From Crambe crambe (Eukaryota > Porifera > Demospongiae > Poecilosclerida > Crambeidae): a DNA stretch of 64,000 nucleotides. Each line of letters begins with the position of its first letter. Position 1 is the stretch's first letter. Shown here one piece after another: positions 38,397 to 63,735 of the stretch. Where the stretch lies: contig OZ004583.1 of the NCBI GenBank assembly GCA_963924555.1, positions 5,489,501 to 5,553,500 of the forward strand, read 5' to 3'. The position numbers and the translations under genes were made by a program. The notes beneath the pieces are model-generated. The model did not search any database. It was not told where the DNA came from and saw nothing but the letters and a program-made list of their open reading frames with translations.

Positions 38397-39690
38397 GCAT
38401 GTATCTGTTCAAGAAAAAATCAAAGGTTATTTAATAGGCATGGTCAATTGAATGGCCATGGAAATTTCTGACTTATAGTTAAAGCACACTTGTAGGTAGC
38501 ATTGTTAGAAGCTTTGCAAGCTCAACTGTGATAATATATTATAGTCAACAGCAGCATGCCCTAATACATTTTCCTATGGTATTTTGCCACTCAACAAAAT
38601 AAATATCTGGAGAATTTGGAAATTTCGATGGACGTTCAATTGACCCCACCTATCAAATAAGGCCCAAGTAACTATTAATGTTTACCTTTCCCCCTTCTCC
38701 ACAGATGTTGAAATCCAAGTCAGACTGCTCAGACTGCTAAAACTGGTCAACTGGTGTGGCTACAGACATTAGCCATAGAGTGTGCTTACTTAGTATTAAT
38801 AATTATTTTCCATTCCTTACCTTTCAATAATGATGAATGTATCATTACAATTGAGTCTAATATTTTCATTCCTTGGCTACTGGGACACAAAAAAAGGATG
38901 GATGTTTTACATCAGTAGAGCTTCTGGAAGCCATTCATGATAAGTTTATACTCTACATACCTTTAAGATGCATTTGGCCCTCGTTTGTGTAGGCCTACTA
39001 CAGAAGCATACTTCGGGTTGTAACTACAACCACGAAGTTATTTTAGCCACAAAATTTTACCGAGTTGTAGTCTTGTGCCATGGCAACCGTACAGCCAAAT
39101 TTTAGGTACAGTATAGCTAGTATGCATGCGGTAGAAATTTTTTGCTAATCATGAAAAATGTGCGATTTGATAATGAATTAATTCATCGTGGAAAATAAAT
39201 CTCGTGTTTTAAGGGGATTTGGGCACGCGTGCGTTTTGACTGATTCAGTGTAAAACATGCATTGAATACCCAATGGAACATTTGATTGTTCCTGAGCTTA
39301 GATTCTTTCTATAGACTCAACTATTTGGTGAACAGCTGACAGACGTAGCTATGCACACACAATAATTATATGGCAGCGAATTGTGACAGTGTTTGTTTGA
39401 TCATGCATGCACAGTTTGATTTTTGATATAAGATAAGGAAAATGTCTTCTTGGCCGGGTCTTGCAATGAAAGGACAGTAATTTTGTGTAAAAAAATTTGT
39501 GTGATACACAAGAAAATTCTCAGAACAAAACAAAATTTCCAGGCAGGAAAATGATACATCATGTGCATTGGCGATTCTGAGGGGAGAAATTTTCCTGATT
39601 TTGCCATTTTTGGCATAGTATCGTGACATCAGTATACCAAATATTATGAAATGCACATACGTAGTCTCCGGTACGTTGGCGATTAGCAAA
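38397..39690. other. 5' flank of the large gene, non-coding
   Basis: No gene supported. A short hairpin CTTCGGGTTGTAACTACAACCACGAAG-like stretch lies at about 39,011-39,037. Minus-strand frames at 39,366-39,689 show no motif. Confidence 0.45.
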
Positions 39691-45415: not shown

Positions 45416-45596
45416 GTGGAATTTAGGGTTTACTGCCTGTAGTCCCTGAAGTAGGAATAGTTAGCTCGTAGTTTGGTGATGGGTAATGGTTATGACTCGT
45501 TTTATTTGTTCATCACCTTACGTATTCGTACCACCCGCCCACGCGCACCGTCAAATATAAATTATTCGCGAAATTACATAATTTTGACTCAACTGG

Positions 45597-45637
45597 TTTC
45601 AGCCGGTTTCAGCCAGTTTCAGCAGGTTCAGCTGGTT
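45597..45637. repeat. GGTTTCAGC(C/A) short tandem repeat in front of oxygenase gene
   Basis: Four to five 10-11 base units (TTTCAGCCGG, TTTCAGCCAG, TTTCAGCAGG, TTCAGCTGG) end nine bases before the ATG, so they lie in the probable 5' leader. Confidence 0.8.
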
Positions 45638-45645
45638 CCTATATC

Positions 45646-46854
45646 ATGATGACATTGAGTTTGGCAGAAATCAGCCTTTCTTCTATTGTAAAATCTTTAG
45701 GTGATATGGCTGCAAGTAGATTTACCTGTGGAGGCAATACTAGCAGAGAGGATATTAGAGTGAACTGTATCAATAAAACTGGAATATGGAGTGAAGTGAA
45801 TCTTTCTTCTGAAGCTAACCTTCAAGAAATGATCGAGTCAGCTGATATTGCTAGTTTCGGAAGAGGCAATGAATACTCACTGGATCCCAATAAATTTTTC
45901 ACTTCATTTCAGCTCTCTAATACTAGCATTCTAGAAAATACTCAGCAGTTACTTGTTCCAGACATCCTCGACATTCGTGCTGAGCTGTACAAGATGAATA
46001 TCTACACGGGTCCTGCCGGTTGTTTTAAGGCTCATGTCGATACTCCACGTGGAGGAAACATGTTTGGTAGCCTTGTGGTGTGTTTACCAACTCAGTTTAC
46101 TGGAGGGGCTTTGGTTGCTAGGCACAATGGTCAACAGGTCATATACAACTGGGATAAGAAAAGTGGTAACTATATTATTCAATGGGCTGCTTTCTTCAGT
46201 GACGTAGAACATGAAGTACTACCAGTAACTAAAGGATATCGCATAACTCTGACTTACAACCTCTATCATTCTGATCAGTTTAGTCACACATCCATAGTAG
46301 ATGCTGCTTCCTCTCCATTCTACACCAATCTGAAAGCAGCACTTGATCATCCACATTTTCTACCTGATGGAGGAGTCCTAGGCTTTGCCTGTCAGCATGC
46401 TTACATCTTTGAAGAGTTTGATAAGTCAAAAAGTCTCTCCTTGTTGTTGAAAGGATCAGATCGCACCATTCTAGCAGCTGCAAAATCGCTTGGTCTCAAA
46501 TTAGAAGTAAAGCCAATAATTGTTGAAGCTAAATATGATGGTTTGTGGCGTGGCTGTCCATTAACTCAGTGTCACATACGGAAAAATTTTGGATTTTCAA
46601 CAGAAAAGTTTCATGAAGAGGGGTATGACATCATCAATTTCCCGAACAATCTTGAACTGACTGACTCTCATATCACATGGTGTCAGAGACTCGGAGAAAT
46701 CAAGCAACTTGCTGTTGCAGCTTTAGCATACGACAGTGAGCCCTATGTAGATAGATTCTACCAGGCAGCAGCCATTTTGATAGCTATTCCACAGTGGAAT
46801 GAGAGATCAGTGGAAGAACCTTCACCAAAAAGGCCTCACATGAGTGAGAATTGA
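45646..46854 (+). CDS. 2-oxoglutarate/Fe(II)-dependent oxygenase, prolyl-hydroxylase-like
   Basis: A single uninterrupted frame of 402 residues. The core carries YTGPAGCFKAHVDTPRGG with the iron ligands H130 and D132. GSLVVCLPTQFTGGALVARH forms the strand-turn-strand, then FFSDVEHEV gives the third ligand H189 and GYRITLTY the 2-oxoglutarate-binding R199. This is the complete HxD...H...R set of the prolyl 4-hydroxylase-like superfamily, so the enzyme should be active. The substrate (protein or nucleic acid) is unknown. No signal peptide is apparent, so a soluble enzyme is likely. The gene ends about 300 bases before the left end of the KDZ transposon and lies outside it. The second Met (residue 2) is an equally possible start. 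Confidence 0.85.
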   Translation: MMTLSLAEISLSSIVKSLGDMAASRFTCGGNTSREDIRVNCINKTGIWSEVNLSSEANLQEMIESADIASFGRGNEYSLDPNKFFTSFQLSNTSILENTQQLLVPDILDIRAELYKMNIYTGPAGCFKAHVDTPRGGNMFGSLVVCLPTQFTGGALVARHNGQQVIYNWDKKSGNYIIQWAAFFSDVEHEVLPVTKGYRITLTYNLYHSDQFSHTSIVDAASSPFYTNLKAALDHPHFLPDGGVLGFACQHAYIFEEFDKSKSLSLLLKGSDRTILAAAKSLGLKLEVKPIIVEAKYDGLWRGCPLTQCHIRKNFGFSTEKFHEEGYDIINFPNNLELTDSHITWCQRLGEIKQLAVAALAYDSEPYVDRFYQAAAILIAIPQWNERSVEEPSPKRPHMSEN

Positions 46855-47151
46855 AACAGTGTGGCATGGATACATATGTAGCTATTAATTCTATGATTTA
46901 TGCATTGCTATGATGCATTACCACAATTCAATAAGTCAGAACTTGACATGGTGTCACCCCTCATCCTATTGGGTTCATACCAATCCAAGGCAGTACAGGT
47001 GCCTACCTTCAGGAAAAGGATTCAACCATCAAGTAGCTATTGTAGTTACTTGATGCTACATTGCCCATATCCTATGTCAGCCATTTTGTATAGTAGCTAA
47101 TTAGCTATGAAGGAAGATTTATAATAGCAAATTAAGTTCAGTAATACATTG
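46855..47151. other. 3' flank of oxygenase gene, ends with KDZ target duplication
   Basis: No coding signal. The last seven bases, TACATTG (47,145-47,151), are the left target-site duplication of the adjacent transposon. Confidence 0.6.
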
Positions 47152-47235
47152 CACCCGGTTCTCACAGAAATTACCAGGTAATCACCTGGAGGTTCATAGG
47201 TCAAATTATCAGGTAGTACCTCAGTCACATGTGAG
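47152..47235 (+). repeat. Left terminal inverted repeat of KDZ element
   Basis: Begins CACCCGGTTCTCACAGAAAT and ends CACATGTGAG; 83 of 84 bases match the right arm. It contains an internal palindrome, TTACCAGGTAATCACCTGG. The homeodomain gene's ATG lies 55 bases further in, so the arm probably includes its promoter. Confidence 0.93.
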
Positions 47236-47289
47236 TTCACGGTAAGGATCGTCCAATAAACCTAAATTAGCAAAAATAATTTCAAAATC

Positions 47290-50200
47290 ATGAAGAGGAG
47301 GCCCAGGACCATATTCACTCCTGAGCAAAAGGCTGCTCTGGAGGCAGCCTACTCAGGTGGAGGAATTAAATCTAGTGAAGAGATAGATAAACTTTCCCTG
47401 GAACTAAAATTGAGTCCATCTGTGATCAAAGTGAGTTGGATAGGAAAGCTACTCAGGTCTGATAGCTTGCTAGGTCCTTAGCTATCATCTGTAGAGCGTT
47501 TGCATATGATGTCATAGCATATAGCAACAGCTTTGCAACCTAGTATTATGTCTGTGAGAAGCTGTGTGCACCAATGGCCACTGTTGCTAGCTAAATTGAT
47601 GCTGTGCAAATGCTCTATTCTTGGGATCAGTACCTCCACCAATATGCAGCCTTGGTTTTACCATACAGTCTCTTGTTCTCAAAGATTGTACTGGGATACA
47701 CGTTGGTGGATAATTAAGTAAACAGTACTCACAGCACCTGTCCTCTCCTCTTACACCATACACGCACACACACACACACACAGAATGAAAATGGGACATC
47801 AGACTCGCCAGAGGGTCTGGAAAGCGAGACAATCTTACTATTGAAATGAAATCTCCCCTAAAACACAGAGGATATAAATTCGTCCTCCAGACCATCTTCA
47901 TCACTAATCCTAATAGCTTGGGACTAGTTCCCACTCAGATTAGTGCATACATTTGGGACGTTGTCAAGTTCCTAGAATGCCCCTCAAAATAGCCATGAAT
48001 ATAGGTGTTCAGATTAGCGAGGGTTCGGATTAACAGAATTAGGATTAGTGAGGGTCCACTGTACAATACACAATGCTGAAGGCCCTAGCATTGGAGATTT
48101 TAATCAAGCTTCTACGAAGTAGAGGCCAATAATGGGGTAGCTCCTTTGTATGGACTCAAACTGTACCAAGCATAAAGAGCCTCATGGCTACTCTTAATCG
48201 TATGTAACTCTGGTACAGGAAAATTTTTCCCCTTAGCTTAAAATGCTTAGATCTTCACTGGTTTGCACTACTTTGGCATGTTGGTATCTATGCTTGTGTA
48301 AACTGATACCCTTTATCAAAGTAATATCATGATTATTGCATGCAATCGCTAGGCCATAGTGACCTTATGGCATTAATACCTTGTGTGGAGATTACCGTTG
48401 ACATTATTTGCTGCATGTGGTTGGTCACACAAAGTACGTAGGATAAGTGTTGCAAGGTTGTAGAATGCATGCAATAGTGAAGCTAGTGCAATGTGCATGC
48501 ATTTTTCTGTGTGATTTGACATTTGACATGATACAATAACCTTTATCCCAATTATTGTTATATGTGTCCCCCATCCGGCATGGTGGGCATGTACCAAACC
48601 AATATGCCTTTTTCACATAAGCCTGAGGCTACCTTTTGGCTGCTCAAAGGACACTTTAAAAGGTTACCACTGCTTACTACAGAGAGTCTCAGGCATATAG
48701 TTTTTAACCTGAAATAGCTCTACTCACTGCCTATTTTGTGCCTATGTGTAAAAACGGAGATTGACTGCCATCATTACAATTTTGGCAGCCATGGTAGCCA
48801 TGGTAATCTAGTGAAAAAAAAAGCCTATTATGTACATACATAGATTGCTTGGTTTACATGTACATCCACTTTGTTTAGAACTGGATAGGGAACAAGCGAC
48901 AGAGCAAGACAGGAAGGCCTCCAAGAAAACTCACCAAACCAAATGCATACAATGTTTTTACTGGCGATTTTTATAAATCTGAAGGTAATTTTTTTGGTTT
49001 ATCTTCTTACAATTATTATGAAAAAAGTTTGTTCTTAGAGGGAAAATCTATAGAATCACATGCCACAAAGAATAAGATTGTGGCCGAGAGGTGGCGAGAG
49101 CTGTTGGTATCCGAAAAAGAGCAATACTTTGAACGCAGTAGAGCTTCTTCCTCAGATAATCCAGTTCCAGAGTGTTCCTGGAAGGAAGCATGTAGAATAT
49201 TGAGAAATTTTGAATCTAGTGTGAGTATGGATATTCAATCCAATTTCAGTGGGTACTGTGTGTGCACTGACCAGTAATATCCACTAAAAGGGATGGATCG
49301 GCAGGGTTCTACAAATTTTTACTCTATTATGGAACTACATACAAACTCTATCTCATGGGCATCTAACTCTAGTATGTATACAGGGGGGCAATAATTGATC
49401 ACAAGTGTAGTTATACACTTTCTGTGAGCTTGCGTTGAAGTCAGAGAAATTTCCTTCTCCTTCAGCCAAATATTTTGAGGAAGAAACTAACCAAGTAAAT
49501 GGAGGCTTAAGCTTGATTAGTGAAGATCCACTATGCCATCATGGAGGCAATAATTGCAGCGAGCGAAGCGAGTGAGCTGACTCTCAGGTCATGACTCATT
49601 GAAATTTTAAATATATATATCTATGTCTACACTCCAAAATGCCCCAGGCGTACGTACGTACGTACGTACGTGTCGTGCAATAGTAGCGCCCCTGCGCGTG
49701 CATTTATGCGCATGCTCCAGTTGTAATTGCTTGATTGATTTCTACATCACTTTGTTTATAGCATGGTGGATAGTAGGGCTAGGCTTATCTAAGTGGATTG
49801 TAGGCACTAGACATATCTAAGTGCTTTGTGGTAAGTACTTAGCTTTCTATGCATGCAACTGCCTGCCACTTAGCTAGCTACATAACACAACAGCAAAGCA
49901 CAAATGAACTATCAGCTCAACATTTCTACAGCCTTTTGGGCAGCAGGCACAAGAGGCTTATCTAAGCGGCTTGTAGGCACTAGGCTTATCTAAGTGCTTT
50001 GAGGTAAGCATGTATGCAGCTGCCTGCCACCACTTACATGACTCTAGCAATATCAAGCACTGAAGCCTATCAGCTACTTTAATTGCTCACTATCAAATGC
50101 TGCACATTGCTACAGATACTCAACAGCAATCGTTGAAGAATGTACTTGCTTGCTCGCTCGCTGTCAACTGAATGTTGAACATTGCCCTAGTAATAGTATG

Positions 50201-51106
50201 GTGCATTTACGTACTCGGGTTTCTTGGGCCGAACAGTGTGACATACAAACCATGTATGTGGTGTGCCATGGGCAGAACCATTACTGTGGTGGCACTTCTC
50301 TGGGAAAGAAGTACTGGACGCAGCACCCTCATGTGCCTGAAGAGTTCCTACTAGCAGTGAATGCAGGTACAGTACAGTCTAATACACACGTCCTGTTCAA
50401 GTAGCTGCTCCCCATCCCCCCCCCCCCCCATCCCCCCCCCCCCCCCCCCCCCCCCCACCTCCCACCTTTATCAAGGTTTAGAAAAAACACCCAGAGAGGA
50501 ATATTTTGTTGAAATTGCACTGTGTAATCAGGCCACCTCTGTATCGAGGACAACTTTTCTTGTCCCAAGGGATGAATATATAGCATAATGTGTGCTGGAA
50601 GAATGCGTACATTGTTTACGTATGTAATGATATCATGTAATTTTTGGTCAATGAATAGACTTGTAGGGTTACCATAGTGTCGTACCTCAATCTAACCCTA
50701 TTACCTTAGTAGTGTGAAATTTATCTGACTCCATTTAGTGCACCTAGCGAAATTGCTATGCAGTAGACCCTTGGTTATCTGGACCTCAATTATCAATATT
50801 TGGATTGGTAAGTGATTCATGGTGTTTTCTTTGCAGTGCATTAAATGGAATTCGATAAAGTTTACTCACTATTTCACTCATCCAGACACCTAGTAGATTA
50901 GTAGTCTATGCTCACTTTGACTATTCTGTCAAAGACTGTAAATTTAAATGATGAGCAACTGTACAGTGCAACACCTGTTTTCTTAGAGTAGCTCCTATGG
51001 GGTTTCTATGGGGTAGGCCCTTGGATATGTGTTTGCACCTCCCCTTGGAGAGAACTTGAACATGCTGGCATATTGGATCCTGCCCCCTTAGACCCTGATT
51101 TGCCCT

Positions 51107-51138
<32 letters not shown>

Positions 51139-52508
51139 TGTGTATAGTCCTAAAAGAAACCCTGCTCCTACATTAAACTTGTATTTGCTGCTAGTACGTA
51201 TGTACCTACTTGTGTATGTATAATAAGAAGGTGGTTTCATTAGGAATCATGATTCTCGTAAATGGGTTTAACCACATGGTCTTACCTTTCACAAAGTACA
51301 TTGGTATAGAATACAGACAATTTGTGTTATACTTCATTTTAGAAAGGTCCAGTATTTCTGAAGAGACCAACAGGGGGCGTGAACATTGGGAAATGCTTCG
51401 TAAATCTGTTCAAAATATTCTTAATTTGAAATATGGTAAGTTGTATTAAGTTTCTCTTAGTAAATTTCACAAGTACTTCCATTTTACATTATAGCGATGG
51501 CAGTTGGAAAACCCAAAGCTAGGGTTCCATACTCCTCCATTTCAGCATTGAACGTGAGGGGTTTTCCGGCTGATCTAAGATTTGGACCTCCCTCGTCCTT
51601 TAGGAGCAAAGCTTGAAGTGTATACTCAACAATGCAGATGACATTGAGTTCATTGGTATGTTTGGTAATAAATGCAGTGACCATCTATGTAAACATGTGC
51701 CCTTTTTAAGAGATGTGTAATCAATAGAAAGGCAATCATTTTTAGGGGAGGCATGTCTCTTGTTAAGGGTAAGACCTAAGGATGATGTTATGAATGTGAT
51801 GCATTTCGTGTTATTGGGGCACACTAACTTGTCTGTTGTAGAAGGTTGTGGTTTGGTGCATTGAGGTTGTATCCAGAGGTTGTCTTTATTTAGAAAGTCC
51901 TTATTGGAGGTTGTACTGTACATGTGGATAACCTACATAAATCCCTAAATCTTTTTGTCTGTAGATGTGGACAGTACAGATTCCATTTCAATGCACGCTG
52001 ATCACTCTTATGCTAAACAACTTAAGGACCCCATCAAGCTACCATCAGTAAAACGAAGGAGGATTAGTGCAGCATCTGTTTTAGCAATGTTCAGTTCGAA
52101 GAGGTTCTTAAAACTCTGGTGTCGAACAGTTCTGAAGCAAGAGACAGGGGAAAGGCGAAATTGAGAACACTAAAACCAGGATCTAATACTGTTGTGTCGC
52201 ACAGTTCTGATAAGTCTAGTTCTGAAGCAAGAGACAGGGGAAAGGCGAAATCGAGAACACTGAAACCAGGATCAAGTGTCCAGGTTCTATTTAATAGCCA
52301 TTCAGTGGCTCAAGCAACAGTAATGGAGGGTACCTTGCTGCACGGTAAAGACATACCTAGTGGTTATGTGAAGATCACTATAAACAGTTGCAAGAAGGAT
52401 ATTCAAGTTCCTCTACAAATAGTGGGAACTTTTGATGAAGAGGATGATGTACTGAGTTCAGGTCTGATTACAGCCTGGAAGCTAGCTAACCTTATCTCTG
52501 ATCAATGA
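47290..52508 (+). CDS. Homeodomain plus HMG-like protein, six exons
   Basis: Proposed exons: 47,290-47,430; 48,879-48,984; 49,039-49,218; 51,343-51,435; 51,965-52,047; 52,095-52,508. All junctions are GT-AG and phases agree, giving 338 residues. Residues 1-57 form a homeodomain: RPRTIFTPEQKAALEAAY, SSEEIDKLSLELKLSPSVIK and, after the first splice, NWIGNKRQSK, with the W and N of recognition helix 3. Residues 66-115 (KPNAYNVFTGDF, KNKIVAERWRELL, SEKEQYF) resemble an HMG box. The C-terminus has two copies of SEARDRGKAK and a globular stretch (VQVLFNSHSVAQ..) that was not identified. It starts just inside the KDZ left end, so it is probably the element's accessory DNA-binding protein. The 47-base last intron and exon 4 are the least certain parts. 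Confidence 0.75.
48985..49038 (+). other. 54-base in-frame intron of homeodomain gene
   Basis: GTAATT...TCTTAG; length is a multiple of three and it contains no stop in frame. Retention would insert 18 residues into the HMG-like region, so two proteins are possible. Confidence 0.5.
49782..50032. repeat. Direct duplication within intron, about 90-base unit
   Basis: GGCTTATCTAAG(T/C)GG(A/C)TTGTAGG to CTGCCTGCCAC occurs at about 49,781-49,869 and 49,958-50,030. Also nearby: CGTA tandem repeat at 49,648-49,672. Confidence 0.8.
50411..51136. repeat. Two long C-runs in intron
   Basis: C-runs occupy most of 50,418-50,457 (interrupted by short breaks) and about 51,107-51,135. They are on the sense strand of the homeodomain gene's long intron. 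Confidence 0.85.
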
Positions 52509-52983
52509 AAGGTCATTATTTGTGTGTCGTTATTGTGACATCATCATTCATCTTTCTGATCAAAAGGTCATTACATACTGTCATTCTTTCTGGTCAATGA
52601 AAGGTCATATTCATCTGTATACATTTTAATAATGGAGTTAATGTTTTTTGAAGAAATATGGACCATTAAATCTTGAACGCCTAAGGTGTTCTCTACTTGA
52701 TTTAAGTATTCTGTCCAGATCTTCCTTACTGCGATGTAGAAATAGGGTCTTTTGGGGGCGCCGATATATGCCATCAGCTTCAGGAACTGAATGGACAACA
52801 ATACCATAGAATATCACTGGTGCAAGTATATTAATGTTGTACTATGTACCAGAACTGCTTGATGGTGGGCCTGTCTTAATCAGACTCAATATTGCTTCGT
52901 CTTCGCTGCTTAGGATGTTGCTGAACTCCCTACTTCTAATTTCCTGTGATAATGATGTATTACACTAGAGATGCTCGTATAGC
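52509..52983. other. Space between convergent KDZ genes, left part
   Basis: 3' flank of the homeodomain gene. AAAGGTCATTA-type phrases repeat at 52,508, 52,565 and 52,599. No other gene is seen. Confidence 0.5.
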
Positions 52984-53684
52984 ATTAGTTGGGCGAGCAA
53001 GCAGCCAGTGGTCATTTCAATGTGCTCCTCCCTCACTTATGATTATATAGCCCCAACAGTGACTTTCGATATCTAGCTATTCAGGTTGTTAACTGACTTG
53101 GTGCATTCCCAGTTAGCATTAGAGTGTCTTCTCTGAACCCAGGCTACCACTCCTGTTCAGACTCAGTAGCCAGTCTCTCAAATAATGAGCCCTCATATGC
53201 TGTAATCTGGCAGCTCTGTGTTCTGCTGACTCTGTTCTCCTTCTAGCTCTCATTTGCTCTGCTCTTTCAGCATTATCTTCTGCTGACTCTGTACATTCCC
53301 TCCTCCTGGCTCTATCTGTCGCATTTCTTTGCTAGTCTTGTTTTTCTCTGTTCCTTTGACTCTGTTCTCCTTCTAGCTCTGTCTCTTTCATTTCTTTCAT
53401 GAGGTCTCGCTCTTCTTTGCTGGTCAGTTTCTAGAGGGTGTTCTGGGGCCCTCCTTCGCTTGTTTTCTGGTTCTCTGGGTTCCATAATACTCGCTACAAT
53501 AGTGTTTCAACTTCAAGCTTAACGAAAATGATTGCTTATTATGACGTTGCTTAGTAGCTATTTCATGCGCATGCGTAAGCGCATGCGCATTTTGAGTGAC
53601 GTACGTGTAACATATAAATATCGCAATTTTCCATTTTGACCAATTAGTGTGGGGCTTCGCTCGCTTCGCTCGCTCGCCAATTAT
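52984..53684. mobile_element. Candidate inserted element with GCGAGC-type ends
   Basis: Left edge ATTAGTTGGGCGAGCAAGC and right edge CGCTCGCTCGCCAATTAT resemble those of 39,878-40,953. On the minus strand, 53,484 downwards encodes an Arg-rich stretch (RDRARRRTESKEQRKTRLA, then RARRRTESAEHRAARL) like the N-terminal repeats of Helitron/PIF1-type proteins in animals, broken by stops. No target duplication was defined. Confidence 0.45.
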
Positions 53685-53717
53685 AAATTACTTAATACCC
53701 ATTGCAAGCATACATAC

Positions 53718-53822
53718 CTTTAGAAATTCTTCACGTTCAAACCGTTCTTTTGCCTGCTTGCTAGCTTTTTCCAAAGCTTGAGCAAATTCTTCATCTTCGC
53801 TGCCTTCACTTGACTCATCTGG
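53718..53822 (-). other. Possible acidic exon, minus strand
   Basis: Between an acceptor (TATGCCAG) at about 53,823 and a donor (GTATGT) at 53,717, one frame reads SSEGSEDEEFAQALEKASKQ then AKERFEREEFLK. It looks like a genuine charged, helical exon. No partner exon was found, so it may be a remnant of a third gene in the element or the end of the transposase gene. Confidence 0.3.
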
Positions 53823-53984
53823 CATAAACATTCACAACGATGTGAAAGACTGGTGTCATTGTTACCGTCTGAAGCCTGTGGGAGACTTTTTGGAGCCTGT
53901 AGTGAGGGATCCATATCAGTCCCATGCTCCTCTTCCACAGCCTGTGGGGGATCCATTTTCCTACGACCCCTTTCCATGAGCCTT

Positions 53985-54137
53985 GGGAGTCCAGTGTTAC
54001 GCCTCTTCGCAGTCAGTGGGGGGTCCACATCATCCAAGGTCCTCGGGAGTCCAGTGTTGTGCCTCTCTGCAGGCAGTGGGGGGTCCACATCATCCAAGGT
54101 CCTCGGGAGTCCAGTGTTGCACCTCTCCGCAGTCAGT

Positions 54138-54173
<36 letters not shown>
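53985..54173. repeat. 60-base minisatellite ending in a long G-run
   Basis: Units of 60 bases (GGGAGTCCAGTGTT...GTCAGTGGGGGGTCCACATC) repeat about two and a half times, then a run of about 34 G residues follows (about 54,139-54,172). On the minus strand the unit encodes RTLDDVDPPLPAERHNTGLP in tandem and the run encodes proline. Confidence 0.9.
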
Positions 54174-54174
<1 letters not shown>

Positions 54175-54515
54175 ATATCACTTCTTAGCTCCCTCTCTGT
54201 AATCTGAGGGAAATTATTGTTATTGTATACCCCTTTTCCAAAAAGTCTACTTACAGCACTACTTGGCCTCACAAACACACTTTCCATAGCCTGTGAGAGG
54301 TTCCAAGTTGAATCTATTATAAAATTGAAAGTGAAGATACCAGAAAGTAGGCTCTCTATGATCCTTCAAGACCATCTTCTACAATATCAAAATAACTCTT
54401 ACTGTAATTAGTACTAAGACTGTGTGGAATACCAGTAAACTTGACACCAGACACTTGTTCTGTTAGTACACAGGTGGTCTGCAGAGGAAAAGGGACTTCA
54501 GGAAGTTCGATTGAT

Positions 54516-57500
54516 TTAGAAAAAAAACTTGATACAAGCCCTGATCTCCTGCTCATAATAACGCTGCTTAATTTTTAAAAGGCATAGAGCTCCACAATTG
54601 AAGTTGGAAGATAAAGTTTGCCGTTGTAAGATAGCATCCGCTAATAAAGCATGCTGTTGAAGGAAAAACTGAACTACACAGTTTTAATAAGGTCAATTTC
54701 TTCAATGGCTCTGTTCTTCCTTGCTAATGCATTGATTGCATTTATTCTAACAGACCTTGGTACCTCCAGGTATGACTCATCATCAGGAAGAGGAGAAAGC
54801 CAAACTGAAGATGATAAATTTGTTACATCTTCCCACGACAATTGTTCTTCCGGTGTAACAATGCTATTGTACTCAATAAGAAGAGATCTCAGTTTCTTGG
54901 AGTCAGTTGTAATCAATCGACACAACCTTGTTGCCATACTATGACCCTCTGCAACAACAACCGGGTTAAAAGTTATCATTGGTTAATGAACTTATTCTTA
55001 CCAGCAAACTTAGCCTTAATAGACAACATGAACCACCGTTCTCGAGCTATTACACCAAGCTTCTCTAGTAGTTTCCCGCCTTCACTATTAGGCTCTGCAT
55101 AACATAAATTATTATAATACCTTATCATCATAAACACTCATTAAATACCTTGTCTATTCACACATGATTGTTCAGAACTCAACCAATTCTTAATTGTTTC
55201 TTCTTCAAAAGATACTATAACAGAAATGACAACAGGTACTTTGATGGTATTAATTTTAGCTTGTATGTACCTTGAAATCCAGAGGTCAATTCTAAGAGTT
55301 TCTCTTCAGATTCCAGTCTGACCTTTTCAGCTCTGTTAAGTCGCATACAAAGCAAAGTCTCTAAGAAACAAAATTATTAAAAATTCAGCAATCAATTATC
55401 ATGACAATCATATTAACTTAAATTCATTGCAGTAAGCCTAGCAAAGTGAAGGAGAGCATCGGTCAACACATCAATACGGTGTGAGGGCCTCATTTCCTTC
55501 GTCATGCGAGAAAACCTTCTCATGAACGACCACAATCTCTCACAAACCTCACCATCAGACAAAGCAAATCCTTCTTTATAGCGAGGACTCATTGAGAGCT
55601 ACATCAATTAGTTCAAACATGACATACGTACACCATAAAATCCACACACCTGACAGTCCATTCTGTGACCATAGGAGTGGAAAACTGGTATAGCAAATTC
55701 AAAGAAAGTCAACAAGTCACTTCTGCTCTTTCCCTGAATAATCAGTTAAGTGATGAGACAACATAGAGGTACATACATTCAAATACTTTGTACCTTCAAA
55801 TGCTTACTCAGAATGCAAGCTACATCATAGAGAAATAGCACTTTGGAGTGTTTTTCAGAGCGCTTCTTAATCATTTCAAGAGCATAAACAATATAAGAGA
55901 TTCTATGATAGTTATAAATAATTACATTATTAACCAAGTCAGTAATGATAATATCAATCTGACCTTTTCACCATGCCTAAGATTGAATAAACGATAAGGA
56001 AACTCATGTCTACAAGAAATTCCAATCACATCAGTCTCATCCAGGGCTTTATATCTTGATTTTGACCTCAAAAGATTCCCGGCTAGAAATTCGCTACACT
56101 CCTGAGGACGCTACAGTAGATAGTACATCATTACGTATCTATATCATTAACCTTAGTAGTAGCAGCTTGTCCAGCATTATAACCTTCTACAAATGCATCC
56201 ACTTCAGCCTGGTCCTCAAAGTAAACACCATTATGAAGAGGAGGCCTGACACTCTTTCCAGCACTTTTCTTCCTACACAGTCCGAAGTGGCCATCAATGG
56301 CCAAAACAAGTGGACCATTGTTATCACTCTAAGAAAGCTTAGAAAGATGACATTATTCAATTGCATGCAGCAGTTACCTTTTGGCATGCAGGACATTCAG
56401 TTCCATTACTGAGGTCTTTGCACACCACACGAAGATGTCGAAGCTGATTCTTCAGATACCTACGTATGTAGAGCAAGAGGGTACAGTTTTATGCTACCAC
56501 CATAGGTATCAAATAACCTGTATTCCTCAAAAGCATTTAGTAATAGTCTGTAAAAATCTATGCGTGTCTTCTCAATTATCTATCAAAATTATCTCATAGT
56601 ATCCGTATACCTGCATAGGGCACCTTACTAAGCAACAAAGTGCATTAGTGAAATCTTTAACAGCAACCTGACATTCCAAAAGTAATGATTCTAGTAGATC
56701 CAACAGTTGAAACTGAAATGCAAGCTGTGGACACTGTGGTGTAGCAGCAAAATAGCCAAGTTTAATTAAGATATCCGGTTCACTAAAGCAGCGGCAAAAT
56801 TTAAACCTAATTTTGCGTTGTGCACCTATTGTGTTGTCAAAAGGAGGTTAAATTCTATATCACTGACATTAATACATACCAAAGCCACCAACACAGGTTA
56901 AGTCACGAAAATAAGCTGTGTCACATTGGTGATCCCTAATAAACAGTGTGCTGATAGGCAAATACAATGGAACATACACGTCCTCCTGTAAAATTATGTG
57001 CACATCATCATGAACTTACACTTTGAAAATCACACTAACCTTCCACAATAAAAGATCATGGAATAAATTAATACTACTATGCAATTTCTGCGTGCATTCC
57101 ATGCATAAATGTGCACCACAGTCTTGACATAGCACAGTAGCTATCTGTAAAGAGCAAATTGAGCACCCTTGAGTCAAGGAAGGACTGCAAGATTCAATCA
57201 ATGAATTTAACAATTGTGATCGTATTTTCTCCCATGCTTCAGCAGATTTTGTTTCCCGACACTCGTGGGTTCTCTTACATGGAAAGGTGGTATCCTACAC
57301 AAAAACAACCAGGGAGGTCATCATAAATAATCACTTCTTCAATATCAAATGCCACAGGTGATAAGAAAAAAAATAATATTGGCGTTAAAACACCAGTACC
57401 AACTACAGCAAAATTTATCCAGAAACAGATTATAACAATAGCTCATCATCAAGGACTTCCATAGCCTGGCTGTTCACGGTGTTTGCGTGCATGCGCCAGT

Positions 57501-57865
57501 TTGCTTTGAAGTTTACTTCTGCTAGCCCAAAGCAAATTGGTGTATGCATGAACACTGTATACCAGGCTCTTCTGAAGAGCCTGTGAGAACTTTCAGATAT
57601 CTAGTGTCACACTAGAAACTGTTCAAAAATATTTAACACTTACCATAGCAAAGTCGTCTCCACAGTCGTCTCCAGCTGAAAAATCTTCATTGCTGTTATC
57701 ATCCCTGCTATTATTAATAGGAGTTAACACATTCTGTTACCTGCTGGGTCCCCTTGAACCCACAAGAGGAACTGAAAATCTTGTTATTTTAAGTTTAGAA
57801 GTTTTAGAAGATATCAAGTTTAGTTTAACAGTAGCAGGTCTTCTCTTCTTTCTAATAGCTGACAT
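54516..57865 (-). pseudogene. KDZ transposase, about 16 exons, with frame lesions
   Basis: Exons read on the minus strand: 57,865-57,741; 57,707-57,644; 57,294-57,040; 56,985-56,880; 56,825-56,629; 56,570-56,518; 56,459-56,378; 56,328-56,152; 56,110-55,964; 55,902-55,794; 55,733-55,650; 55,598-55,418; 55,360-55,271; 55,214-55,149; 55,094-55,002; 54,948-54,674, then 54,660-54,516 in another frame. Features in order: basic N-terminus, CSICSLQIATVLCQDCGAHL and CMEC cysteine cluster, ECPACQK, AIDGHFGLCRK, LDETDVIGISCRHEFP (catalytic-type Asp), SYIVYALEMI, LFLYDVACILSKHL, VFHSYGHRMDCQ, ALSDGEVCERLWSF (catalytic-type Glu) and an EEIDLI-type C-terminus. These are signature blocks of the KDZ transposase family. 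The exon 9/10 junction is out of frame by one base and the end near 54,670 also shifts, so the copy may be dead. Sizes suit a protein of about 750 residues. Confidence 0.85.
57462..57573. mobile_element. Hairpin MITE in transposase intron 2
   Basis: TAGCCTGGCTGTTCACGGTG and following bases pair with ATGAACACTGTATACCAGGC across a short loop; inner arms GCCAGTTTGCTTTG and CAAAGCAAATTGGTG also pair. About 110 bases long with no coding content. Confidence 0.65.
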
Positions 57866-57979
57866 CACAAAGCCAAGAAACAATAGACAGTACAGCTAGC
57901 CACCAGCTAGCTAGCTAGAATTATATTTTTAATATTACTTTCGCTCAATTGGGGCATAAGGACGACCCAATGCTAATGC

Positions 57980-58063
57980 CTCACATGTGACTGAGGTACT
58001 ACCTGACAATTTGACCTATGAACCTCCAGGTGATTACCTGGTAATTTCTGTGAGAACCGGGTG
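57980..58063 (-). repeat. Right terminal inverted repeat of KDZ element
   Basis: Reverse complement of 47,152-47,235 with one mismatch. The transposase ATG is at 57,865, 115 bases inside. A GTGTACATTG junction carries the target duplication at 58,064-58,070. Confidence 0.93.
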
Positions 58064-58070
58064 TACATTG

Positions 58071-58240
58071 AGCCATAGATAAACGAGGGGAAAGGGATCG
58101 GCAACAGCATCACGTGCGCCCATAGGCGCCTATACAAAAATGAGCCCAGGCCTTTGATCTCACGCGCTTTTCCACCACACACTTAGCGCGTTTTTGGCGC
58201 CAAATACAAAATCCACTCTACAGAGCAGAGGAAATCATTC
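58071..58240. promoter_or_regulatory. CpG-rich candidate promoter of the THAP9-like gene
   Basis: CACGTGCGCCCATAGGCGCC, TCACGCGCTTT and AGCGCGTTTTTGGCGCC fall within 110 bases, between the KDZ end and the first likely exons on the plus strand. Inferred from composition and position only. Confidence 0.3.
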
Positions 58241-58637
58241 TAATTTTTCATGCGAGTGCAGCTGGCCTTGTTGCCTCATCAGCACAACCTGGCCTGCTTA
58301 GAAAACTGAATATTTTTTTTAATCAATGATCCTGCTTGGATACGATCAAAAATATCACTACTGTCCCTCCTGATCCCTTGCTGCCTGGGCTAAAGCTGAA
58401 GTAAGTATACTAAAGTATGTTTAGTAGGTTACTGAAGGTAACTGGGTAGAAATTCAGGCTGAATTAATTTTTTTATACTGATGGGTTCTTACATGAAACT
58501 GGGAGTGTTTCAGTCCCTCTCACTGAGTTCTGCAATGACCTGAGGACAATTTTAGGACCAAAATTTAAGCTGATGCCAGTGGTGGAGGGCACCATCATGA
58601 GCAATCAAAATTACATAGCCATATAATATATTCACAG

Positions 58638-59235
58638 AGATGCCAAGAAAGTTCCAGTTGACTAGAAAGAAAAAGTGGCTGTTGAAGAGACAGACAAGAC
58701 GAATGAAGGTATAATAAAATTGCCTATATACATTATAGCAAAACTGATAATACTGTAGGGAGTACCTGCTGAGCAAGTACTTAGTGAACCTGCAGCTGAT
58801 GAACCTGTTGCTGATGAACTATGTGATATTCCTCACCACCTTAATCACTCATCTTTCTTGAAACTTTATTCCATCCTTGATTCAGCGACTGTGTGTCCCG
58901 GTAGCCCACAACCTCACTATTTGGACATGGCACGCTCTAGAAAGGGTAACTTTTTGTCAGCAAGGAAGCAACCAATGGCTGTTCTTGAAACTAGTCCTCT
59001 GACCACTATTCAAACCGTTGATTGCCACCTACTCACTCATGGTTTGAAATGTGACAAATGTAAAAATTATGAACCTACACTTCGTGCTCTCCACAGTCGC
59101 TGGGTTCACAAGAAGAACAGCTCCCCTAAGAGTGTGAGCAAGTTCACTAATAATCGATACTTGGACACACCCCAAAAAATTTTTAAGCTACAGTCACTTA
59201 AAAGGAAGGCTATTGGTGCCGATAGGCTAGCTAAG
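58638..59235 (+). pseudogene. P-element/THAP9-like transposase, 5' part
   Basis: A basic first exon (MPRKFQLTRKKKWLLKRQTR, to a GTATAA donor near 58,710) is followed by a second exon starting at about 58,760. The second runs through CDIPHHLNHSSFLKLYSILD, LTHGLKCDKCKNYEPTLRAL and FTNNRYLDTPQKIFKLQSLK to RLAK, where a Ty3/Gypsy element interrupts it (59,236). Upstream open pieces (58,340-58,410; 58,495-58,600) may be further 5' exons. The block order agrees with the region before the catalytic core of THAP9/P-element transposases. A recognisable THAP finger was not seen here. Confidence 0.65.
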
Positions 59236-59409: not shown

Positions 59410-60110
59410 TCAGAGACCTTGAGAAAAATAATCTGGAGGATGCCTTTGTCGTACAGAACGACGTGGAGGAGGTGGTGGTGTGTTCAATTCCCTCGGGGGA
59501 GTAACGATCAGTTCTGGTGGTGGGAGAGGAAGCGGCTCCTCTGTGATTGTTGGTGTTACCGGGTAAACATCCGGACCCAGTGTAGGGTCTAGCATGGGAG
59601 AAACTGAACGTTCGACTACTGGTGGATTTAAACTTTCAACTCCTTGACGTAAACTGTCCACATGTCTACGTACAGTATATCCATCCTGTAGCTCGATACA
59701 ATAGGATAATGGGCCAGTGACATCCACTACAGTGCCAGACAACCATTTTGATCCAGTATTTGAAAAGTTTTTAGCATAAACATGATCTCCAATAGTAAAA
59801 GTTCGTGTAGGCTTTCCAGAATCATGAGAATGCTTTTGTCGCATCTGTTCCTTTTCTACTTTGTCAGACAACTCGGGGTATAGCAGATCCAGCTTTGACC
59901 TTAATCTTCTTCCCATTAGTAACTCTGCGGGAGGTACACCTGTTGTTGAGTGGGGGGTAATTCGGTATTTAAATAAGAACTTCGATAAACTGTCTTGAAT
60001 ATTCTTTCCTGGTGTCTTCTTGATGCCTTGCTTAAAAGACTGCACTGCCCTTTCAGCGAAACCATTACTGGATTCTTGAGGATGCTTGCTCCGGAATTTT
60101 CCTAGACTCA
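59410..60110 (-). pseudogene. Integrase C-terminal remnant and tail
   Basis: The frame starts at the HPQESSNGFAERAVQSFKQG motif (end of the integrase core). It continues with RITPHSTTGVPPAELLMGRR and a small C-terminal domain (WLSGTVVDVTGPLSYCIELQ, RRHVDSLR), then a proline-rich tail to 59,410. The zinc-binding H2C2 module and the first two catalytic acidic residues are absent, so no integration activity is possible from this copy. The open frame extends upstream to 60,249, but that part lies in the antisense of RNase H coding and is not meaningful. Confidence 0.85.
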
Positions 60111-61620
60111 CTGAACAAGTAAGAGAGAGGTTTGTGATCTGATTCGATAAAAAATGGTCTGCCATATAAGTAGTTGTGAAATTTGGTAACCCCAAAAATG
60201 ATGGCCAGGCCCTCTTTCTCAATTTGTGCGTACTTTTTTTCAGCAACATTTAAAGTCCTTGATACAAATGCAATAGGTCGTTCTTTCCCGTCCTCCATGA
60301 TGTGTGAAAGCACTGTTCCTAAACCATACTTCGAAGCATCGCATGCTAGTATGAGTGGCTTGGAGCTGTCAAAATGCACTAATAGAGTATCGGCCTGTAG
60401 GGCGTCCTTAGCTGTCTGGAATGCTTCACCCTGCTTAGGACCCCAAGACCATTTGACTTGCTTGGAAAGTAAACTGTACAGTGGGTTTAGCTTGGCTGAT
60501 AAATTCGGCAAGAATTTACCATAATAATTTATCATTCCCAGAAATGCATGTAACTCAGACACTGATTTGGGCTGGGGGGCATTCTTGATTGCCAGTATCT
60601 TGTCTGCTGATGGGTGCAACCCATTAGCATCTATTATGTGGCCCAGATATTGAATTTGAGGTTGTAGAAAAGCACACTTGGCTTTATTCAATCGTAACCC
60701 AGCAGATGCAAGTTTACTTAGGACCATGTCCAGATTAGATGAATGCTCTTCAGTTGAGGACCCTGTTACCAGGATATCATCAATGAACACAGCTACTCCT
60801 GGTAATCCCGCTAACAATGTTTCCATGGTCCTTTGCAATATGGATGGAGCCGAGGAGACCCCAAAGGGTAACCGATTATAAACAAATAAATCTTTGTGGG
60901 TATTAATAGTAACAAACTTCTTTGAATCCTCAGCAAGAGGTAATTGAAAATAAGCCTGAGATAAATCCAATTTAGAAAAAGATTTCCCACCCGAAAGATT
61001 TGCGAATAAATCATCCACACGAGGAAGTGGGTGGGTTTCAATCAATAAACCCTTATTCACTGTGGTTTTGTAATCCCCACAAATCCTAAGAGAACCATTT
61101 CGCTTTAAAACTGGAACTATAGGAGCTGCCCAATCTGAATGTTGAATAGGGGATATGACACCCATTTCCTGTAACTTCCTTAATTCTTCTTCAACTTTTT
61201 GTTTCAGGGCATAGGGTACCTTTCTAGGTCTATGAAATGTAGGCCTAGCTTGAGGATTCACTTGTAACTTGACCTGAACACCTTGCATGCACCCAAGCTC
61301 CTCTGTGAACACTGCAGAGTGCTTTTGTAAAGCTTCTTTCAATGGGTTGGAATGTGTCAGGTTGTGAACTTTTTCAACTGTAAAACCAAACTGGCTTATC
61401 CAATTTCTACCCATCAGGTTGGGTCCCTCCCCTTCTACCACTAGTATAGATAACTCAGCCACCTGTTTTTCATACCTTACTTTGATGGTGGCAGTTCCAA
61501 GAACAGGGATAGACTGTCCGGTGTAGGTTCTCAGGTTTGCTTCTGTCCTCTCGAGTGGGGATATGGTGGAATTCTTCTGAATGGCTTTGGTACGTTCCAA
61601 TGCTGATGAGGGAAACTGCT
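60065..61620 (-). pseudogene. Protease end, reverse transcriptase and RNase H
   Basis: One open frame covers the protease C-terminus (NLMGRNWI), then reverse transcriptase: KLDLSQAYFQLPL, NRLPFGVSSAPSILQ, and VAVFIDDILV with the paired Asp of the active site. RNase H follows with LACDASKYGLGTVLSH, KEGLAII and SDHKPL. It stops at SSRIQ (60,065), where the sequence has been joined to integrase. The 5' end is entered by a frame change just after the protease active site at about 61,610. This is a typical Ty3/Gypsy pol order. Confidence 0.9.
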
Positions 61621-62180
61621 GCCCCTGTGTCCAGTTCCATTTCCACGGGGAATTCATTGATCTGGACTTGCACCCGAATGGGATCTTTCGATTCCTGTAG
61701 AACAGTGAATGTGGAATAAGTTCCTTCATAATTGTCATCTGGCGATTGTGTTTCTGCAATGTGAACACTGTCGTTTGATTGGCTCTTCCTGTCTTTTTGG
61801 CGTGATTTCAACTTGCATACTCGAGCCAGGTGGCCTTTTTTCTTGCAATAGTTACATAAAGAGTCTTTAAATTTACAAACTGGTGCTAGGTGGTCTCCAC
61901 CACACCTGTAGCATGTGATTACCCTTGTACCTTTTGGTTTAGGGGCATCGGTACCAGGAACTGTGGCAGCAGGTTTCTGAAACGACTGATTGTACAACAC
62001 TGGCTTCCCGTTCGTGGTGGACGTTGAATGCTTGATATCTTTCATATCTTTTTCTGCCAGTTCAATGGATTGTGCCAATTCCACTGCTTTCTGGTAGGTT
62101 AGATCCTTCTCATAGAGCAGTCGCTTTTGTGTGCCCTCATGTAGCACTCCACAAACAAGTCTGTCACGAAGCATGTCCTT
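61600..62180 (-). pseudogene. Gag C-terminus with two zinc knuckles, and protease start
   Basis: From about 62,174 the frame reads through DRLVCGVLHEGTQKRLL, then two knuckles, CYRCGGDHLAPVC and CNYCKKKGHLARVC. It ends in the protease active-site motif ELDTGAAVSLIS near 61,620. Beyond it the frame is no longer the pol frame. The gag N-terminal part (62,551-62,180) lies one base out of frame, at EYGAP. Confidence 0.88.
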
Positions 62181-62551
62181 CAGGGAGCCCCGTATTCACA
62201 GTGCTCTGCCAGAGTTCGAAGTGCGGCAAGGTAAGTTGCAATGGACTCTCCTTCTGCTTGGTTCCTTGTATTGAATTTGAATCTCTGTACTATTTTTGAC
62301 GGCTTTGGCTGGTAATAATTCTTCACTAGCGATACGATATCCTGAAAAGATGTCGTGTTGACCTGGTCTGCCGACAGGAGACTTCGAATCAGCTGGTAAG
62401 TAGTTGCTCCGCAGTTAGAGAGTAAGATGGAGCGTTGTTTTGTGGCGTCATCCACCCCGTTAGCAATAAAATAGTGAGTCAGGCGTTCTGCATAGCTACT
62501 CCACTCTTCCTTACCCGGTACATACGGAGGAACGGTTCCATGCATAGCCAT
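62180..62551 (-). pseudogene. Gag N-terminal part (capsid-like)
   Basis: The likely start is the ATG at 62,551, about 25 bases after the 5' LTR. EEWSSYAERLTHYFIANGVD, the LLSNCG block and QAEGESIATYLAALRTLAEH belong to the Ty3/Gypsy capsid-like gag family. The frame ends at 62,180; a one-base shift joins it to the zinc-knuckle part. Confidence 0.85.
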
Positions 62552-62557
62552 ACTCGC

Positions 62558-62575
62558 TTTCTCCTCGTCGCCAAA
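62558..62575 (-). promoter_or_regulatory. Primer-binding region
   Basis: On the minus strand TTTGGCGACGAGGAG directly follows the 5' LTR, where the tRNA primer pairs. The tRNA was not identified. Confidence 0.6.
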
Positions 62576-62726
62576 TGTAGTGAACTCGCCTAGCACAGTT
62601 CTGCACGCTTTACAAACACAATAATAATGATTATTTAAAATGCAATTTATATACCGGTAACAAATAATGACGTAATGACATGATTATGTAATGTTAATTA
62701 GTATTCATAGTACATAGTCTACCACA
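62576..62726 (-). repeat. 5' LTR of the Gypsy element
   Basis: Identical by eye to the 3' LTR at 59,236-59,386; followed outward by the CTAAG target duplication at 62,727. Confidence 0.95.
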
Positions 62727-62731
62727 CTAAG

Positions 62732-63735
62732 AAATTGGCGGAGAAAATTGAGCGCGTCACTGAAAGAAATGGCATTGAAGTTGATGCAAACCTACATGGT
62801 GATCTTTTATGTATAATGCAAAATAATGATGCAAATATAGCTAAGTGATAAATTTCCACCTGGAACCTTCAGGCATCTGTTCTGGAAGGAACAGCTGAAG
62901 TGTGCCACAGTGAGGAATGCACGCCAAATGCGATGGCACCCCACCATGATTAAATGGTGTTTGAATTTAAAATTACTTTCATCAGCTGCCTATCACATAG
63001 TAAGTATATGACAAGAACACTTCTCATGTCATTGGGTTTGTCGAGCTGAATGATGTGTATGACCAGTTACTACAGCTTGAATCAAGCCAGGATTCTCATG
63101 GTCCGATTGCAACTCACATCCTGGGTCTGATGGTTAGGGGGGTATTCAATGATTTGCAATTCCCTATTGCCCATTTTCCAACTAAAGATGTTGCTGGAGA
63201 ACATCTTTTTTCTATCATGTGGGAGGCAGTTGAGAGACTAGAAAGACTAGGATTTAAAGTTGTTGCTCTAACTGCTGATGGAGGCTCTCCTAATAGAAAG
63301 TTTTTCCGCATGCATTCTGCTTCAAGAGGTCTCTCCTATCGGACTCGAAATATTTATGCCACTGAAGAGAGATTCATCTACTTCTTTGCTGATGTACCAC
63401 ATTTGATGAAGACAACCCGAAATTGTTGGTCACATTCGAGTGACAAGGGAACAAGGAATTTATGGGTAAGATTACGTAGCTATATAGGCATTCACTACAT
63501 TTTTACTTGCCTTGTAAAACATATACAGATTAATGGGAAGCCTATAGCATGGAAACACTTGTGGGACTTGTATGATGCCAAGTGTGGTGTTTCAAAGCGC
63601 TCGCAAGGTTTATTTTTTCTGAAGAAGCTCTGCAGAGAGCATGTTCAGTTGACCTCATACAGTCGGATGATGGTGGATCTTGCTGCAGAGGTATGTGTGG
63701 AATACAAGCTCGTTAGCATCATTGTTCCTGCATAA
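62732..63735 (+). pseudogene. P-element/THAP9-like transposase, 3' part
   Basis: Coding resumes after the Gypsy insertion with KLAEKIERVTERNGIEVDA, then a stop and shift at about 62,847. FRHLFWKEQLKCATVRNARQ and MRWHPTMIKWCLNLKLLSS follow, then from 63,040 GFVELNDVYDQLLQLESSQ, LMVRGVFNDLQFPIAHFPT, FKVVALTADGGSPNRKFF and YFFADVPHLMKTTRNC. These are the conserved catalytic-domain blocks of P-element/THAP9 transposases: DGGSPNRKFF and DVPHLMKTTRN carry acidic residues of the RNase H-like fold. The frame ends at 63,735 shortly after a GAG|GTATGTG donor-like site (63,690), so further exons may lie beyond the window. Besides the retrotransposon insertion there is at least one frameshift. Confidence 0.8.

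What the first reader, a model, noticed from the sequence alone, without database searches (positions are those of the whole stretch)
47145..58070. A two-gene KDZ transposon with near-perfect ends
Seen: 84-base inverted ends with one mismatch, a 7-base TACATTG duplication, and two inward-facing genes starting 55 and 115 bases inside. Known: KDZ transposases are a recognised class, first described in work on fungi linking them to TET/JBP genes. Inference: this is a well-preserved metazoan member with a defined accessory gene, and the ends act as promoters for both genes.
Basis: partly seen in the sequence, partly recalled or inferred. Interest (0 to 1): 0.9.

Follow-up and report, generated by a model that had tools for sequence, protein, structure and literature searches.

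The report
Jumping gene carrying a homeobox gene
This is a real two-gene DNA transposon in an animal genome, probably a sponge; one gene makes the cut-and-paste enzyme, and the other makes a protein built from parts normally found in gene regulators, which probably helps the enzyme find the transposon's ends.

Summary
In detail: 84-base inverted ends (83 of 84), a 7-base TACATTG duplication, two inward-facing genes. The arm matches 7 places, making 4 copies; all 4 carry the KDZ transposase. Three copies have perfect, different 7-base duplications. As genes the window copy is not well preserved: both are frameshifted relative to a sister copy that is open throughout. The new part is the second gene. 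It encodes a homeodomain, an HMG-box-like domain and a GTF2I repeat, and matched only inside these copies. Three other, diverged KDZ families here have a second gene at the same place, with a homeodomain-like plus HMG-like front and the same two intron positions; rear halves differ (GTF2I-like in one, Ulp1-like plus PHD in two). So a homeodomain-HMG partner looks like an old, recurrent part of animal KDZ transposons rather than one-off cargo. Most likely it works like Harbinger's Myb-like partner, binding the ends and the transposase (inferred). Promoters in the ends are untested. No report was seen in partial listings of the held library.

The parts
47145..47151 (.). target-site duplication TACATTG, left
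47152..47235 (+). terminal inverted repeat, left arm (84 nt, starts CACCCGGTTC)
   Evidence: arm matches 7 places in the genome
47290..47430 (+). accessory gene exon 1: ATG and homeodomain helices 1-2; exon ends two residues before the helix-3 Trp
   Evidence: PF00046 34.2 bits from 47290-47433; splice sites by eye, present in window, C1 and C3
48879..48984 (+). accessory exon 2: homeodomain helix 3 (NWIGNKR) and start of HMG-like box
49039..49218 (+). accessory exon 3: rest of HMG-like box; exact 3' splice choice uncertain (49218 or 49220)
   Evidence: HMG_box 17.5 bits, under cut-off
49554..50190 (.). nested 637-bp insert in an intron, only in this copy
   Evidence: absent in C1, C3, C20
51343..51435 (+). 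accessory exon 4: start of GTF2I-like repeat
   Evidence: matching intron place in relative P0001
51495..51655 (+). accessory exon 5: GTF2I-like repeat; frameshifted in this copy
51965..52508 (+). accessory exon 6: C-terminal part, conserved in relatives P0001/P0002; frameshifted in this copy
52964..53679 (.). nested 716-bp insert between the genes, only in this copy
54674..54948 (-). transposase exon 16 (last)
55002..55094 (-). transposase exon 15
55149..55214 (-). transposase exon 14
55271..55360 (-). transposase exon 13
55418..55598 (-). transposase exon 12 (DGE...ERLWS, presumed catalytic Glu)
   Evidence: PF18758 44.3 bits; columns invariant in 7 animal relatives; catalytic role recalled
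55650..55733 (-). transposase exon 11
55794..55902 (-). transposase exon 10 (YDVAC, presumed second catalytic Asp)
55964..56101 (-). transposase exon 9; one-base frameshift at its end in this copy
   Evidence: PF18758 23.5 bits as a fragment
56152..56328 (-). transposase exon 8 (DGHFG, presumed first catalytic Asp)
56378..56459 (-). transposase exon 7
56518..56547 (-). transposase exon 6
56624..56825 (-). transposase exon 5 (CxC1/CxC2 cysteine cluster)
   Evidence: PF18802 49 bits, PF18803 32.5 bits from 56575-56847
56880..56985 (-). transposase exon 4
57040..57294 (-). transposase exon 3 (B-box-like zinc cluster, under cut-off)
57644..57707 (-). transposase exon 2
57741..57865 (-). transposase exon 1, ATG at 57865
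57980..58063 (-). terminal inverted repeat, right arm (84 nt)
58064..58070 (.). target-site duplication TACATTG, right

Best explanation
A cut-and-paste DNA transposon of the KDZ superfamily with two genes that start just inside opposite ends and converge. Shown: ends, duplications, copies, KDZ transposase, and an accessory gene with homeodomain, HMG-like box and GTF2I repeat whose front end recurs, with the same two introns, in three other KDZ families of this genome. Inferred: the accessory protein is the element's own DNA-binding partner. The homeodomain and HMG box bind and bend the terminal repeats, and the rear module (GTF2I-like or Ulp1-PHD) contacts transposase or chromatin, so that the DDE transposase assembles on both ends, cuts, and reinserts with a 7-base stagger. 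The terminal repeats probably also hold the promoters, so the same protein may tune transcription. This copy probably moves, if at all, only with proteins from a sister copy.
For: Ends and duplications; 4 of 4 copies with the arm have KDZ. Perfect 7-base duplications in 6 of 8 elements with both ends held (window, C1, C3, L045, L057, C10:2906k); imperfect in C10:204k and L055. Five end types start CACCCGGTTC. Pfam over cut-off: KDZ 144.8, CxC1 43.7, CxC2 28.6, homeodomain 39.7, GTF2I 41.3 bits. Of 11 KDZ loci whose accessory side I held, 8 have the homeodomain exon. Introns at the same homeodomain and HMG places in 4 of 4 families. A profile of the three other families without the window's has 11 homeodomain chains as its first 11 of 16 PDB matches, E 1.1e-6 to 0.53, four of them under 0.01 (that the top chain 2da4 is a homeodomain is recalled); shuffles reaching the real score: 0 (window), 0, 1 and 5 of 5000 each. 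A relative from an unnamed source holds the rear half with matching intron places. Harbinger's Myb-like partner binds transposase and terminal repeats (PMC9179366, passages).
Against: No expression, binding or transposition data. The HMG box is under Pfam's cut-off in the window family (16.4 and 15.9 bits) and over it only in the C10 family (23.7 against 22.4); HMG matches of the joint profile are weak (best E 0.0035). In L045, L057 and C10 Pfam does not find the homeodomain, and in L045 and L057 the usual DNA-contact Asn is replaced. Within families there are too few changes to show selection (dN/dS 0.27-0.43 on 9-16 changes for the window family; exon and intron rates not significantly different, lowest p 0.099). 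Three of 11 loci lack the exon: C20 (that end lost), L053 (fragment), C18 (no opposite arm found). Gene models are by eye, without RNA.
Confidence: 0.6

Rival explanations
1. The accessory gene is a regulator for the element's expression, not a transposition cofactor: the homeodomain-HMG protein acts as a transcription factor on promoters in the arms, perhaps in germ line or embryo, and may also touch host genes.
For: Domains are those of transcription factors. Both genes start 55-115 nt inside the arms. The rear half varies between GTF2I-like and Ulp1-PHD, which fits a fixed DNA-binding front with exchangeable effectors.
Against: No expression data. In two families the homeodomain has lost its usual DNA-contact Asn. 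It overlaps the favoured model rather than excluding it.
Confidence: 0.25
2. A host homeobox gene was captured once as passenger cargo and has no role for the element.
For: The intron lies where 5 of the 20 host homeodomains fetched also stop at a GT. The accessory gene is frameshifted in the window and C3 copies and partly lost in C20.
Against: Four families with diverged transposases share the front end and both introns, and cargo would not be expected to last that long. The best-scoring host homeodomain is only 35% identical.
Confidence: 0.1
3. Two unrelated host genes that happen to lie between inverted repeats.
For: Both genes have many introns, like host genes.
Against: Copies at different sites with the same two genes and three different perfect 7-base duplications; 25 of 25 matches of the accessory protein lie inside the copies (lower bound).
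Confidence: 0.01

Closest known systems
Kyakuja transposons of fungi (KDZ superfamily)
   Same: KDZ transposase, 7-bp duplication, 5'-CA..TG-3' ends and an accessory gene (PMC12730594, passages)
   Different: The two fungal families described there have no terminal inverted repeats, and the accessory gene is TET/JBP; here 84-nt repeats and a homeodomain-HMG-GTF2I gene
Zisupton / Dileera (KDZ superfamily)
   Same: KDZ transposase, multi-exon; Zisupton has terminal inverted repeats and is known in fishes and nematodes (PMC12730594, PMC9297572, passages)
   Different: 8-bp duplications, here 7-bp; 'homeo' occurs 0 times in the main texts of PMC12730594 and PMC12062965
Harbinger / PIF with Myb-like second protein
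   Same: Two-gene DNA transposon with a conserved transposase and a fast-evolving three-helix DNA-binding partner (PMC9179366, passages)
   Different: Different transposase superfamily; partner is homeodomain-HMG, not Myb/SANT; canonical duplication 3 bp (PMC12730594)
Animal KDZ proteins of sponges and corals (Dysidea, Geodia, Halichondria, Amphimedon, Dendronephthya)
   Same: Closest transposases (27 hits); window family groups with Dysidea and Geodia, 99/98 support (14 of the 27 used)
   Different: Whether their elements carry the partner gene could not be tested here

Membership tests
KDZ superfamily | KDZ transposase domain PF18758 | tested here: met
   144.8 bits, cut-off 26.6, in the C1 copy's joined exons
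KDZ superfamily | CxC cysteine cluster beside the transposase domain | tested here: met
   PF18802 43.7 bits, PF18803 28.6 bits, both over cut-off
KDZ superfamily | mobile: copies at different sites with target duplications | tested here: met
   three of four copies have perfect, different 7-mers; the fourth has lost an end
KDZ superfamily | catalytic Asp/Asp/Glu present | tested here: met
   present in the C1 copy; the columns are invariant in 7 relatives; catalytic role recalled. In the window copy the last two lie beyond the frameshift
Kyakuja subgroup | 7-bp duplication and CA..TG ends | tested here: met
   definition from PMC12730594 passages
Kyakuja subgroup | no terminal inverted repeats (as in the fungal families described) | tested here: not met
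   84-nt repeats; so not filed as Kyakuja
Kyakuja subgroup | transposase groups with Kyakuja references | not tested
   no labelled Kyakuja/Zisupton/Dileera references at hand; tree holds animals, unnamed rows and one fungus
Zisupton subgroup | 8-bp duplication | tested here: not met
   7 bp in the 6 elements with a perfect duplication; 2 of 8 imperfect
Homeodomain proteins | PF00046 over cut-off | tested here: met
   39.7 bits, cut-off 22.9. Model of exon 1 plus intron read-through, pLDDT 70: the 50 Foldseek rows listed (of 617) appear to be homeodomain chains, best E only 0.015
HMG-box proteins | HMG-box profile over cut-off | tested here: inconclusive
   window family under cut-off; C10 family over it; L057 piece no match
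GTF2I repeat proteins | PF02946 over cut-off | tested here: met
   41.3 bits, cut-off 27; C10 family 26.5, just under
Harbinger | Myb/SANT second protein | tested here: not met
   no Myb match among Pfam hits; resemblance is of layout and presumed role

The most novel reading that the evidence does not exclude
Animal KDZ transposons as a group carry their own homeodomain-HMG partner, fixed at the front and exchanged at the rear (GTF2I-like or Ulp1-PHD). They have been a long-lived second home, and possible source, of divergent homeobox genes.
Probability: 0.45. Interest if true: 0.75.

Novelty: new variant of a known kind. Interest (0 to 1): 0.62.

Why it matters
Homeodomains and HMG boxes are known as tools of animal gene control. 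Finding them together as the standing partner of a DDE transposase, in four diverged families of one genome, suggests that a transposon superfamily runs on its own homeobox protein. It makes a concrete test possible (does it bind the 84-nt ends, and is it needed for transposition), gives the little-studied animal branch of KDZ a defined anatomy (CACCCGGTTC ends, 7-bp duplication, two convergent genes), and warns that some divergent homeobox or GTF2I genes annotated in sponges may belong to transposons.

Tried and rejected
Tried without result: scans of viral contigs with the transposase alignment and with P0001 (no relatives). Protein search with the L057-family accessory protein (none of the 7991 candidates scored reached E 0.001). 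Selection tests within families (too few changes; the C20 accessory ratio of 0.74 is spoiled by a misaligned missing exon 1 and was set aside; L045 pair 0.13 on 3 changes, L057 pair 1 change). Palindromes inside the arms as binding sites (sum over 5 end types reached by 42 of 3000 shuffles, found after looking, 4 of 5 not significant alone; not used). Fold of the HMG part (pLDDT 35.6, not used). Empty site in this assembly: none (the flanks match only separately). Rfam at gathering scores over 46500-58700: 0 matches. Rejected: chance repeat; host genes between repeats; one-off cargo (disfavoured).
Full report
Observation. The arms (47152-47235, 57980-58063; 83 of 84 identical) and the flanking TACATTG are exactly where stated. 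The element is 10,912 bp. It lies in a 143-Mb genome of 119 contigs.

Copies. The arm matches 7 places, at four loci: C5 (window), C1, C3 and C20. All four have the KDZ domain. Window, C1 and C3 are about 99% identical over aligned bases, and each has its own perfect 7-bp duplication. C20 keeps one end only. A fifth locus, L053, is a 95% identical transposase fragment in which no arm was seen. Among the 7 arm matches there is no copy without genes.

Transposase. Sixteen GT-AG exons on the minus strand give 695 aa in the C1 copy without a stop, with KDZ, CxC1 and CxC2 over Pfam's cut-offs. In the window copy a one-base frameshift at the end of exon 9 cuts off the last two presumed catalytic residues. 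C3 and C20 are broken too. Of 27 database relatives, 10 are from named sponges, 8 from other named animals, 1 from a fungus, and 8 have no readable name.

Second gene. Six exons on the plus strand give 441 aa in the C1 copy: homeodomain (39.7 bits), HMG-box-like (16.4 bits, under cut-off) and GTF2I repeat (41.3 bits). The window copy reads into exon 5 and then stops. Searched against its own genome, 25 of 25 matches fall in the four copies (the tool warns that counts are lower bounds). Two database proteins match its rear half. One, P0001, reads through two stretches that sit where the C1 gene has introns, so the gene apparently exists in another organism, whose name the source does not give.

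Recurrence. L045 (element starting 2.2 kb beyond the window) and L057 are other KDZ elements with their own arms and perfect 7-bp duplications. A fourth family lies at C10. Of 13 loci checked for CACCCGG-type ends, 11 have one and L053 and L054 have none; counting the window there are five end types, all starting CACCCGGTTC (single arms vary: one C3 arm and one L055 end are changed). In each of the three further families the gene at the end opposite the transposase starts with a homeodomain-like exon that stops, in phase 0, just before the residue preceding the helix-3 Trp. The next exon runs from there into an HMG-like box split by a phase-1 intron. The rear differs: GTF2I-like in C10 (26.5 bits, cut-off 27); Ulp1-like (20.6 bits, cut-off 20.7) and PHD finger (30.2 bits, cut-off 24) in L057. 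L045 has a stretch 46% identical to L057's Ulp1-PHD part, with two stops (frames). The Ulp1-PHD part matches many other places in the genome, so it looks like an exchangeable module.

Is it really a homeodomain in those families? Pfam does not see it in L045, L057 or C10. A joint profile of these three alone has homeodomain chains as its first 11 of 16 PDB matches; the best is E 1.1e-6 and four are under 0.01 (the top chain, 2da4, is listed only as a hypothetical protein and its being a homeodomain is recalled). Against a profile of the host's own homeodomains, shuffles reach the real score 0 (window), 0 (C10), 1 (L045) and 5 (L057) times in 5000. With all four families the profile matches homeodomains over positions 1-60 and, more weakly, HMG boxes over 70-131 (best HMG E 0.0035; 69 matches, a few unrelated). 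I take homology as likely, with function least sure in L045 and L057, where the usual Asn51 (numbering recalled) is replaced.

Spread. Eleven KDZ loci had their accessory side in hand, some only in part: window, C1, C3, C20, L053, L045, L055, L057, C10:2906k, C10:204k, C18. Eight have the homeodomain exon; C20, L053 and C18 do not. Other KDZ loci (further C10 copies, which share one flank and so look like local duplications, C9 and others) were not examined on that side. The transposase tree, with 14 of the 27 relatives, puts the window family with Dysidea and Geodia (99/98), and L045, L057 and C18 with Amphimedon, Halichondria and P0007 (98/99); C10 is unresolved, and all six rows from this genome are under half filled. 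So the shared front end spans transposase groups that also hold other sponge lineages, which argues for an old association.

Origin. The intron next to the helix-3 Trp is where 5 of 20 host homeodomains also stop at a GT (20 fetched of the 27 matches outside the element; splicing itself not shown). This fits capture from an animal homeobox gene, but the source class is not resolved: the best-scoring host match is 35% identical, and no match of full length exceeds 37%.

Mechanism. Shown: two genes, ends, copies, domains, recurrence. Inferred: the partner binds the ends and helps the transposase, as Harbinger's Myb-like protein does (PMC9179366, passages). Promoters in the arms are plausible from the 55- and 115-nt distances but untested.

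Literature. Seen as search listings only: 40 of 68 papers listed; 30 of 160; 7 of 7; 20 of 9,844; 6 of 6; 1 of 1; 12 of 77. Passages read: PMC12730594, PMC9297572, PMC12062965, PMC9179366, PMC12477816, PMC8226300. The founding KDZ paper is not held, and most subscription journals are not in the library. So 'not reported' means not seen in these listings: six phrases joining homeobox or homeodomain and transposon gave 0 papers, and no listed title or abstract start joins a homeodomain to KDZ.

Noticed in passing
45496-46851 +: 2OG-Fe(II) oxygenase ORF (PF13640, 35.4 bits) ending about 290 bp outside the element's left end; no TET/JBP match at E 0.01, probably a neighbour by chance.
   Followed up: partly
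58073 onward: The right flank is itself repeated (C8:8705556, 99%; C5:7125069, 87%), with the similarity starting 2 bases outside the duplication: the element sits at the edge of another repeat.
   Followed up: no
C5:5555708-5562971 (L045:2208-9471): A second, different KDZ element with its own arms and CATGTTT duplication starts 2.2 kb beyond the window's end.
   Followed up: yes
49554-50190 and 52964-53679: Two nested inserts unique to this copy; each has a GCGAGCG/CGCTCGC-rich stretch at an end.
   Followed up: partly
C20:490916-491056: A GTF2I repeat (32 bits) away from the KDZ matches listed; could be a host gene or another partner gene.
   Followed up: no
59413-62683 -, 63004-63732 +, 3540-4280 +: Gypsy-like ORFs (by eye), a P-element-like transposase piece (PF21787, 54.8 bits; P-element likeness recalled) and a Mutator-like piece (PF20700, 61.3 bits) in the same window.
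   Followed up: no
33197-38408 -: Two long ORFs (531 and 1249 aa), the first with a cysteine-rich CXC-like tail (by eye); the 531-aa one has no Pfam match at 0.01, the other was not scanned.
   Followed up: no
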